A DNA stretch of 64,000 nucleotides from Caldicellulosiruptor hydrothermalis 108. GTDB lineage: Bacteria > Bacillota > Thermoanaerobacteria > Caldicellulosiruptorales > Caldicellulosiruptoraceae. Every line of letters starts with the position of its first letter. Position 1 is the first letter of the stretch. The DNA lies in NCBI RefSeq assembly GCF_000166355.1, contig NC_014652.1, positions 1,189,001-1,253,000 on the forward strand, in the 5' to 3' direction. The notes beneath the pieces were generated by a model that had not been told where the DNA came from, made no database searches, and worked only from the letters and a program-made list of their open reading frames with translations. Positions 2,929 through 4,635 of the stretch are shown in pieces. The position numbers and the translations under genes were made by a program.

Positions 2929-3062
2929 TTAGTTTTCTAATTTCAAGACTCTAAAACTTGTTGGTTCTAAGTTGATTTCATAGATATTTTCATTTTCTGA
3001 TATCATAGTGACTTTAAGATCAGAAGCTTTTAAAGGATCAATAAGTTTTTTATCAAAAATTA
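2929..3062 (-). pseudogene. C-terminal remnant of a gene disrupted by the TnpB element
   Basis: On the minus strand an open frame of about 45-48 codons reads ...L-I-D-P-L-K-A-S-D-L-K-V-T-M... and ends ...E-I-N-L-E-P-T-S-F-R-V-L-K-L-E-N-stop. It has no start codon and is closed upstream by a TAG at 3082-3084, inside what should be the transposon left end. The ending resembles the C-terminal beta-domain of many glycosidases, but the family is not identified. With the N-terminal piece at 4412-4587 it forms the two ends of one gene. Together they are far too short for a glycosidase, so the middle appears to be missing. Confidence 0.6.
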
Positions 3063-4411
3063 AACAAGAAGGCTCCGTCTTCTACAAGATGGAGATGAAT
3101 TGCTAAAAATATGATATAATATTCCTCAGGTGATTAAAATGTACAAAACACAGAAAAATCATATAAGATGTGATAAACAAACATACAGACTGCTACGTCA
3201 GCTTTGCCACTTTTCAAAAAACTTGTACAACTATGCTTTGTATCATATAAGGCAACACTACTTTAAAACTCAGGAATATCTGCGATATGAAAGTGTATAT
3301 CATCTTGTGAAAGAGAACGAAAACTACAGACTTTTGCCATCACAGGTTGCCCAGCAAACACTTATTTCAGTGGACGAAGCATTTAAATCTTTTCTAAGTC
3401 TTTTGAAAGCCAAAAAAGATGGGAAGGTAGATGAAAGAGTTTCAATGCCAAAATACCTGCCGAAAGATGGGATGTATCAGATAGTTTTTCCGAGGGACCA
3501 GTTCAAGACAGAAGACAAAAAAGTACGATTGAGTCTTGGCAGGAGTTTTGCAAAAGAGTTTGGTGTAAGGTACTTGTATTTTGAGTTGCCACAAACTGTT
3601 TCAGGCAAAAAGCTCAAGGAAGTCAGGATAGTACCAAGGCTTAATGGCAGATGGTTTGAGGTTGAGTATGTGTATGAAGAAGAGCATAAGCTGAGTATTT
3701 TTGATTTGAGCAGATATTTAGGGGTAGACTTAGGGCTTGACAATTTTGCAGCGGTGGTTGATACCATCGGGACTGCCTTTTTGATAGAAGGCAGGTATAT
3801 AAAATCAGTCAACCGATGGTACAACAAACAAAGAGCAAGACTTCAGTCAATCTACAGCAAGCAGGGAATAAAATGTGGCAGAAAACTTGCTCAGATTTCT
3901 CTTAAAAGACAGCATATAATTGACAACTTTTTGAATCAAGCTGTAAGTTTGATAATCAAGCACTGTTTGAACAATCAAATAGGTACAGTAGTTGTTGGCA
4001 AGATGAAAGGCATAAAGCATAAAATAGACCTTGGGGTTGTAAACAATCAAAATTTTGTGGGAATACCATATGACAAGTTCAAGAGGAAGCTAAAATCAAA
4101 GTGCATGTATTATGGTATAAGATATATGGAAGTGGATGAGAGTTATACATCACAAAGATGTAGCAGATGTGGGCAAGTTTGCAAAAGTAGCAGAAGATAC
4201 AGGGGATTGTATGTATGCAGAAAGTGTGGGTGTGTAGTAAATGCGGATGTAAACGGGGCGATAAATATACTTGCAAAGGTAGCTGGTGAGTCTGCGAAAG
4301 AGCAGATAACCAGTAGTGGGTGTGTGAGCCACCCTGTGAGAATAAGGGTAGCGTAGATGCTATCAAACTTCTCACGAAGCCACCACCTCTTGAGGTGGAT
4401 GGTAGTTCACT
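3062..4411 (+). mobile_element. IS200/IS605-type element carrying tnpB only
   Basis: Single-gene element: a subterminal hairpin at the left end (AGAAG/CTTCT, 3067-3083), tnpB, and a strong hairpin at the right end (CCACCTC/GAGGTGG, 4384-4399) ending near GTTCAC at 4405-4411. No Y1 transposase (tnpA) is present, so it depends on TnpA in trans or is immobile. The outer limits are inferred from where the host reading frames resume and are uncertain by about 10 nt. No target-site duplication is visible, as expected for this group. Confidence 0.7.
3139..4356 (+). CDS. tnpB: TnpB RNA-guided nuclease (IS200/IS605/IS1341 type)
   Basis: About 405 residues, the usual TnpB length. An N-terminal helix-turn-helix/wedge part is followed by the split RuvC nuclease. 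RuvC-I is LGVDLGLDN (Asp about 200, counted from the GTG at 3130). A C4 zinc ribbon (CSRCG...CRKCG) and RuvC-III (NADVNGAINI) follow. The usual RuvC-II Glu position is occupied by Gly in VVVGKMKG (about 290); a conserved-looking Glu stands instead in EVDESYTSQRC (about 337). AGGTGA lies 5 nt before the ATG at 3139, preferred over the GTG at 3130. TnpB proteins cut DNA with an omega-RNA transcribed from the 3' end of the element. The reading frame is intact. Confidence 0.9.
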   Translation: MYKTQKNHIRCDKQTYRLLRQLCHFSKNLYNYALYHIRQHYFKTQEYLRYESVYHLVKENENYRLLPSQVAQQTLISVDEAFKSFLSLLKAKKDGKVDERVSMPKYLPKDGMYQIVFPRDQFKTEDKKVRLSLGRSFAKEFGVRYLYFELPQTVSGKKLKEVRIVPRLNGRWFEVEYVYEEEHKLSIFDLSRYLGVDLGLDNFAAVVDTIGTAFLIEGRYIKSVNRWYNKQRARLQSIYSKQGIKCGRKLAQISLKRQHIIDNFLNQAVSLIIKHCLNNQIGTVVVGKMKGIKHKIDLGVVNNQNFVGIPYDKFKRKLKSKCMYYGIRYMEVDESYTSQRCSRCGQVCKSSRRYRGLYVCRKCGCVVNADVNGAINILAKVAGESAKEQITSSGCVSHPVRIRVA

Positions 4412-4430
4412 CTGAGCATCTTCTCTCTTG
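4200..4430 (+). ncRNA. Predicted omega-RNA (reRNA) with guide at the TnpB right end
   Basis: Position-based prediction. In TnpB systems the guide RNA scaffold overlaps the tnpB 3' end and right end, and the guide is the flanking DNA just outside the element. Here the scaffold would include the 7-bp hairpin at 4384-4399 (loop TT) and the guide would begin near 4411-4412 (TCTGAGCATCTTCTC...). That DNA is the end of the interrupted host gene. The 5' end given here is arbitrary. Confidence 0.4.
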
Positions 4431-4587
4431 GGACGGTATCTGCACCTCTGTGTGTCTCAAGGTATACCTTTGAGATATCTAAGTGTCTTTTGAAAAACTC
4501 TAAATCTTTTTCAAGTGTTTCAAACTCTACATTTTTTAAAAATCCAGCAGGGCAGTATATTGCCAGTTTGAAGTTTTCATATGCCAT
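4412..4587 (-). pseudogene. N-terminal remnant of the gene disrupted by the TnpB element
   Basis: About 59 native codons starting M-A-Y-E-N-F-K-L-A-I-Y-C-P-A-G and running to ...P-R-E-K-M-L-R-V; the last 11 residues of the open frame (NYHPPQEVVAS) are transposon right-end DNA. A good RBS (GGAAGG, 9 nt before the ATG) and a promoter at 4636-4663 show it was the first gene of a minus-strand unit. The alpha/beta sequence (K-V-Y-L-E-T-H-R) fits the first strands of a barrel enzyme, but I cannot name the family. The C-terminal end of the same gene lies at 2929-3062. Confidence 0.6.
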
Positions 4588-4635
4588 TTGTCAAAACCTT
4601 CCTTTCAATATTTGAGTAAATCGATTACAAGGAAT

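What the first reader, a model, noticed from the sequence alone, without database searches (positions are those of the whole stretch)
3139..4356. TnpB with the canonical RuvC-II glutamate replaced and a candidate relocated Glu
The strand where most TnpB proteins carry the RuvC-II Glu reads VVVGKMKGIKH, with Gly at the catalytic position (about residue 290). A Glu is present about 47 residues later in EVDESYTSQRC (about 337), just before the zinc ribbon. Rearranged RuvC-II sites have been described for Fanzor proteins and related TnpB clades; this protein appears to belong to such a group.
Basis: partly seen in the sequence, partly recalled or inferred. Interest (0 to 1): 0.55.

Follow-up and report, generated by a model that had tools for sequence, protein, structure and literature searches.

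The report
TnpB nuclease with relocated catalytic glutamate
A bacterial jumping gene here encodes an RNA-guided DNA-cutting protein whose third catalytic residue sits at an alternative place in the chain, a layout already described for a whole branch of such proteins, so the finding is real but ordinary.

Summary
In 63 aligned sequences (relatives 28-76% identical) the only invariant acidic residues are D197, E334 and D370, and G287 is invariant too. In a wider set of 111 TnpBs, 82 have G/E, 28 have E/non-E and one has both; the tree separates the two types. This is the "Ealt" RuvC described by Yoon et al. 2023 (PMC10711439): a D-Phi-G + Ealt TnpB, not a DPG pro-Fanzor. The model puts E334 directly after the fifth RuvC strand; the coordination distance could not be measured. 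Nuclease death is unlikely: triad intact, dN/dS 0.10-0.26. The gene lies in a tnpA-less IS200/IS605 element (3054-4410) with TTTAT target/TAM, left-end hairpin, structured right end, and guide from 4411. Its ends are shared with an autonomous TnpA + canonical-TnpB element, which probably mobilises it in trans; target and left-end guide base covary in 48 of 48 ends. New member of a known kind.

The parts
3049..3053 (+). TTTAT: IS200/IS605 target pentamer retained on the left flank, and predicted TAM of this TnpB
   Evidence: Flush boundary against relatives without the element; TTTAT precedes all 34 left ends of this type
3054..4410 (+). Whole tnpB-only IS200/IS605-type element, 1357 bp, no tnpA
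   Evidence: Ends fixed by comparing copies and by relatives' uninserted locus
3069..3072 (+). Left-end guide tetranucleotide AAGG (last base G; A in the other 33 left ends with a TTTAT target)
   Evidence: named by analogy with IS608 GL (PMC5934647 passages)
3073..3094 (+). Left-end imperfect hairpin CTCCGTCTT-ctac-AAGATGGAG (probable TnpA recognition)
   Evidence: Sequence; conserved in copies
3139..4356 (+). tnpB CDS, 405 aa from ATG (in-frame GTG at 3130 gives 408 aa)
3727..3729 (+). D197, RuvC-I catalytic Asp (DLG motif)
   Evidence: Invariant in 63 sequences
3997..3999 (+). G287 at the canonical RuvC-II Glu position
   Evidence: Aligned with the canonical Glu; invariant Gly in 63 sequences
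4138..4140 (+). E334, alternative RuvC-II Glu (Ealt)
   Evidence: Invariant in 63 sequences; follows strand 328-333 in the model
4159..4227 (+). Zinc ribbon C341xxC344 ... C360xxC363
   Evidence: Sequence; PF07282 match
4246..4248 (+). D370, RuvC-III catalytic Asp (NADVNGA)
   Evidence: Invariant in 63 sequences
4318..4410 (+). Structured right end, predicted omegaRNA scaffold 3' part, overlapping the end of tnpB
   Evidence: 29-pair consensus in 20 copies, 4 pairs with two-sided changes; 4295-4426 folds at z = -3.88
4379..4403 (+). Right-end hairpin, shared with the autonomous TnpA element at G000:516-518 kb
4411..4430 (+). Predicted omegaRNA guide (flank sequence right of the element; length assumed)
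   Evidence: Same sequence follows TTTAT or TTCAT in 7 of 12 genus genomes; no such site in the own genome
4411..4587 (-). 5' part of a host gene interrupted by the element
   Evidence: Relatives carry one intact gene across the site, 571 aa in L224
2929..3053 (-). 3' part of the same host gene; 1414 bp of its middle are missing here

Best explanation
The protein is an RNA-guided DNA nuclease of the TnpB family with a rearranged (Ealt) RuvC site: D197, E334 and D370 form the metal-binding triad, E334 replacing the canonical RuvC-II Glu whose place is taken by G287. It is carried by a tnpA-less IS200/IS605-type element. Its omegaRNA comes from the structured right end, with the guide read from the flank (4411 on), and it should cut TTTAT + guide targets, that is, alleles without the element, which favours keeping the element after excision. 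The element moves when a Y1 TnpA made by an autonomous relative with the same ends acts in trans. Shown by sequence: residues, invariance, ends, target motif, shared ends. Inferred: metal binding by E334, cleavage, omegaRNA use, trans-mobilisation.
For: Only three invariant acidic residues in 63 sequences, D197, E334 and D370. Mutual exclusion of the two Glu positions in 110 of 111 TnpBs, with the two types on opposite sides of one branch (SH-aLRT 92). Model with mean pLDDT 89.2: G287 in strand 281-288, E334 right after strand 328-333, D370 at the start of helix 369-382, the topology given for the Fanzor catalytic Glu (loop between the fifth beta strand and the TNB domain, PMC11423790 passages). 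Structural matches to Cas12f, TnpB and Fanzor2 (Z 27.0 to 21.0). dN/dS 0.10-0.26 in 24 comparisons. Right-end structure; TTTAT + guide site in relatives; shared right end in 12 of 12 genus genomes; target/guide-base covariation 48 of 48.
Against: No coordinates, so the distances from E334 to D197 and D370 were not measured; pLDDT is 50-61 for residues 291-310 and 71-79 for about 331-360. No RNA or cleavage data. The right-end covariation is modest (4 of 29 pairs). The window copy has G at the last left-end guide base where 33 like ends have A, and its insertion came with a 1414-bp loss, so this copy may no longer move.
Confidence: 0.86

Rival explanations
1. Nuclease-dead, RNA-guided DNA-binding protein (TldR-like): loss of the canonical Glu abolishes cutting and the protein only binds and represses targets.
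For: G at the canonical position; no tnpA in the element. Nuclease-dead TnpB relatives exist (PMC13418256, search listing only; their RuvC loss is recalled).
Against: All three carboxylates of the Ealt triad are invariant across bacteria and archaea; element ends, right-end RNA structure and guide/target layout are those of a mobile element; copies occur at many loci.
Confidence: 0.06
2. The real RuvC-II carboxylate is another residue (E331, or one in 285-333) and E334 is structural.
Against: E331 is Glu in only 25 of 82 Ealt-type rows (those rows were chosen as having E at 334). E334 is invariant in the 63 rows of A2, which were chosen by homology alone, and no other residue between 200 and 369 is an invariant acid there.
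Confidence: 0.03
3. This copy is a decaying element: the protein was a nuclease but the locus is no longer mobile or guided. (Compatible with the best explanation for the family.)
For: Left-end guide base G instead of A, G-T instead of A-T in the left hairpin, no linked tnpA, 1414-bp flush deletion of the host gene, other copies in the genus broken.
Against: Intact ORF under purifying selection, intact right end and conserved RNA fold; G:T pairing at the guide base may be tolerated.
Confidence: 0.3

Closest known systems
D-Phi-G + Ealt TnpB clade (Yoon et al. 2023, NAR, PMC10711439)
   Same: D-Phi-G RuvC-I motif, no canonical Glu, Glu six residues before CxxC, zinc ribbon; matches their second regular expression
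   Different: Nothing tested here sets the window protein apart
Pro-Fanzors and Fanzor2
   Same: Ealt position; same overall fold (9b0l_P, Z 21.0)
   Different: DLG instead of DPG; no IS607 serine recombinase next to it; IS200/IS605-type ends
Canonical TnpB (ISDra2, 8exa/8h1j; L001 in the same genome)
   Same: Fold, zinc ribbon, RuvC-I and RuvC-III Asp, right-end hairpin (L001)
   Different: Canonical Glu present and Ealt absent there; the L001 element carries Y1 TnpA and uses a TTTAA target
Cas12f (AsCas12f1, 7wju/8j3r)
   Same: Closest solved fold (Z 27.0)
   Different: Canonical Glu there; no CRISPR array was looked for near the window gene
tnpB-only IS605 elements mobilised in trans (Halanaerobium, PMC7290912, passages)
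   Same: Intact ends without a linked tnpA
   Different: Here the putative helper carries a TnpB of the other RuvC type

Membership tests
TnpB (guided_TnpB, NF040570) | Full-length profile match over curated cut-off | tested here: met
   235 bits against cut-off 100, residues 6-380
TnpB (guided_TnpB, NF040570) | RuvC D-E-D triad with zinc ribbon | tested here: met
   D197, E334 (alternative place), D370; C341/344/360/363
TnpB (guided_TnpB, NF040570) | RNA-guided DNA cleavage | not testable with these tools
   No experiment
Ealt D-Phi-G TnpB clade (Yoon 2023) | Glu six residues upstream of the zinc finger and no Glu at the canonical place | tested here: met
   E334-x6-C341; G287
Ealt D-Phi-G TnpB clade (Yoon 2023) | RuvC-I D followed by a hydrophobic residue and G | tested here: met
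   D197-L-G
Ealt D-Phi-G TnpB clade (Yoon 2023) | Branches with other Ealt proteins | tested here: met
   Tree of 111 rows, the 28 canonical ones on one side (SH-aLRT 92); Yoon's own sequences were not in it
Pro-Fanzor/Fanzor | DPG at RuvC-I | tested here: not met
   DLG
Pro-Fanzor/Fanzor | IS607 serine recombinase association (Fanzor2, pro-Fanzor) | tested here: not met
   No recombinase ORF within the element
IS200/IS605 element | Insertion 3' of a fixed short target, subterminal hairpins | tested here: met
   TTTAT, LE and RE hairpins
IS200/IS605 element | Y1 TnpA inside the element (autonomous members) | tested here: not met
   tnpB only; two Y1 TnpA genes elsewhere in the genome
Nuclease-dead TldR | Loss of RuvC catalytic residues (recalled) | tested here: not met
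   All three carboxylates conserved
Nuclease-dead TldR | Domesticated, not in a mobile element (recalled) | tested here: not met
   Complete element ends, many dispersed copies

The most novel reading that the evidence does not exclude
In this genus one Y1 transposase pool serves two element types that share ends but carry TnpBs of opposite RuvC-II architecture: autonomous TnpA + canonical-Glu TnpB elements aiming at TTTAA, and tnpA-less relocated-Glu TnpB elements aiming at TTTAT. The target, and with it the TAM, was switched by one base in the left-end DNA guide (T versus A), so a non-autonomous element can use another element's transposase yet keep a private target and its own nuclease. One autonomous copy with a TTTAT-type left end (L176) looks like a natural recombinant between the two.
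Probability: 0.55. Interest if true: 0.45.

Novelty: new member of a known kind. Interest (0 to 1): 0.24.

Why it matters
The relocated Glu is published, so the protein itself is ordinary. It is a compact (405 aa) Ealt TnpB with a zinc ribbon and a predicted TTTAT TAM; it could serve to test whether moving the Glu changes trans-cleavage, which Yoon et al. suggest (PMC10711439). The shared ends of the two element types give a natural case of DNA-guided target switching by IS200/IS605 transposases.

Tried and rejected
Nuclease-dead reading rejected on triad conservation. E331 as catalytic Glu rejected. Fanzor-proximal membership rejected (DLG). Rfam search of 3000-4600 at E up to 1 found nothing. 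Pfam found no family for the interrupted host protein. PADLOC gave Cas12-type cross-matches and one to a model named Csx1. A phage-record search found only matches under 60% identity, 112 records. A plain single insertion was rejected for the window copy: relatives have 1414 bp between the two TTTAT-type sites that now flank the element (6 of 6 relatives measured); two insertions followed by recombination, or a TnpA-made adjacent deletion, both fit and were not told apart.

Counting rows: L005 and L009 (the window copy itself), one duplicate (L039) and ORFs under 180 aa were left out, 78 of 81 rows have G/E and the other three are rows that are out of frame or truncated (L066, L091, L121); A2 holds the window, L059 and 61 of the 80 loci (11 with stops or broken frames and 8 short or redundant ones left out); one search holds 66 of those 80. 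In one search the last four rows are unaligned and were ignored. The loci were found through one motif ([NQ]AD[VI]N...), so that sample leans towards proteins with that motif. In one search two rows were in the wrong orientation; one search replaced it.

Full report
Check of the observation. The ORF at 3130/3139-4356 encodes a TnpB. From the ATG, the RuvC-I Asp is D197 in LGVDLGL, the residue at the canonical RuvC-II place is G287 in TVVVGKMKG, the later Glu is E334 in EVDESYTSQRCSRC, and the RuvC-III Asp is D370 in NADVNGA. HMMER alignments to solved Cas12f chains put G287 opposite the Glu of the MEDL motif of the best match and E334 opposite the residue before HTSQ or YTSQ.

Is it more than chance? 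In an alignment of the window protein with 62 relatives at 28-76% identity, D197, G287, E334 and D370 are invariant, and the three acidic ones are the only invariant acidic residues. In 111 TnpBs, chosen partly by homology to the window protein and partly as PF07282 hits in a draw of 101 genomes of the phylum, 82 have G at 287 and E at 334, 28 have E at 287 and another residue at 334, and one (L235o1) has both. A maximum-likelihood tree puts the 28 canonical proteins on one side of a branch (SH-aLRT 92) and all others on the other. E331 is Glu in only 25 of the 82. Within the genus two copies have Gly at 334 and one has Ser at 287 with D370 lost, which looks like decay.

Structure. AlphaFold2 with the 63-row alignment gave mean pLDDT 89.2 and pTM 0.78. 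G287 lies in strand 281-288, E334 follows strand 328-333 immediately before the zinc ribbon, D370 begins helix 369-382. This is the place described for the catalytic Glu of Fanzors (PMC11423790, passages) and for Ealt TnpBs (PMC10711439, passages). The best structural matches are Cas12f (Z 27.0), with a canonical TnpB (8h1j, 22.5) and mimivirus Fanzor2 (21.0) below.

What carries it. Comparison of copies and of relatives lacking the element at this place fixes the element at 3054-4410, 1357 bp, after a TTTAT at 3049-3053. It has a left-end hairpin, the tnpB gene and a right end whose last 93 bases fold into a consensus of 29 pairs in 20 copies, 4 of them with changes on both sides; the window's right end with its flank folds better than all 200 shuffles (z -3.88). 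There is no tnpA in the element. The flank 4411 on would be the guide. In 7 of 12 genus genomes the same flank, with up to two variable bases allowed for in the pattern, stands after TTTAT or TTCAT, and no such site is left in the own genome, as expected for a TnpB that cuts element-free alleles.

The host site. In the relatives one minus-strand gene, 571 aa in L224, spans the place; here its two ends flank the element and 1414 bp between two TTTAT-type sites are gone, flush with both ends of the element. Two insertions followed by recombination, or a TnpA-made adjacent deletion, would give this.

Who moves it. The right-end motif AGGTGGNNGGTAGTTCAC occurs 51 times in 12 of 12 genus genomes and never in the reversed control. 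In the loci examined it closes both the tnpA-less Ealt elements and elements with a Y1 TnpA and a canonical-Glu TnpB, such as L001 in the own genome. Of 48 distinct left ends, 34 have a target ending in T and all of those have A (33) or G (1, the window copy) as last guide base; 14 have a target ending in A and all have T. In IS608 the target is read by base pairing with such a left-end guide (PMC5934647, passages). The 34 comprise 33 tnpA-less elements and one TnpA-carrying element with a canonical TnpB (L176), which looks recombinant. Trans-mobilisation of tnpB-only elements has been proposed before (PMC7290912, passages).

Selection. Against 24 full-length copies (23 from the genus, the own genome included, and one on a contig filed as viral), dN/dS is 0.10-0.26, so the protein is maintained.

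Comparison with what is known. The relocated Glu, its distance from the zinc finger and the split into DPG and D-Phi-G clades are published (PMC10711439, section 23). The window protein is a D-Phi-G Ealt TnpB. It is not a pro-Fanzor and not a nuclease-dead TldR-like protein by the residues tested. The paper searches listed no paper that by its title or abstract start treats this element, which says little since the library is partial.

Verdict. Observation confirmed, interpretation supported, novelty low: a new member of a known kind. The less expected part is the shared ends between elements with the two RuvC-II layouts and their one-base target switch.

Noticed in passing
L062-L141 and others, rows: 61 of 82 Ealt-type TnpBs in the sample lack the CxxC...CxxC zinc ribbon but keep D197, G287, E334 and D370; a search that requires CxxC (as in Yoon 2023) would miss them. 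The sample was found largely through one motif, so the share is not a census.
   Followed up: partly
L235 (G093:C4, second TnpB-type ORF): A TnpB with Glu at both the canonical and the alternative RuvC-II place, sitting on the Ealt side of the tree on a long branch; perhaps a transitional form.
   Followed up: no
G000:309193-310365 (L007): A second kind of Ealt TnpB in the same genome, beside an IS607-type serine recombinase ORF, with the zinc ribbon lost.
   Followed up: partly
G000:22653-24151 (L006): A Y1 TnpA gene overlapping a third kind of TnpB, also Ealt-type (VLGDLKG, VKENGTSQVC).
   Followed up: no
L176 (G006, Y1 TnpA at 407523): Autonomous TnpA plus canonical TnpB element with a TTTAT target and guide base A, the left end of the Ealt elements: a likely recombinant.
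   Followed up: partly
L055-L058 (G009): Several near-identical copies in G009 have tnpB broken after residue 273; one of them (L056) reads DPG at RuvC-I.
   Followed up: no
L059 (IMG/VR contig IMGVR_UViG_3300034759_000344): A 96-kb contig filed as viral carries a copy 76% identical with the same element ends.
   Followed up: no
L228 (G007): The host gene interrupted in the window is also shortened in G007, by a different internal deletion.
   Followed up: no
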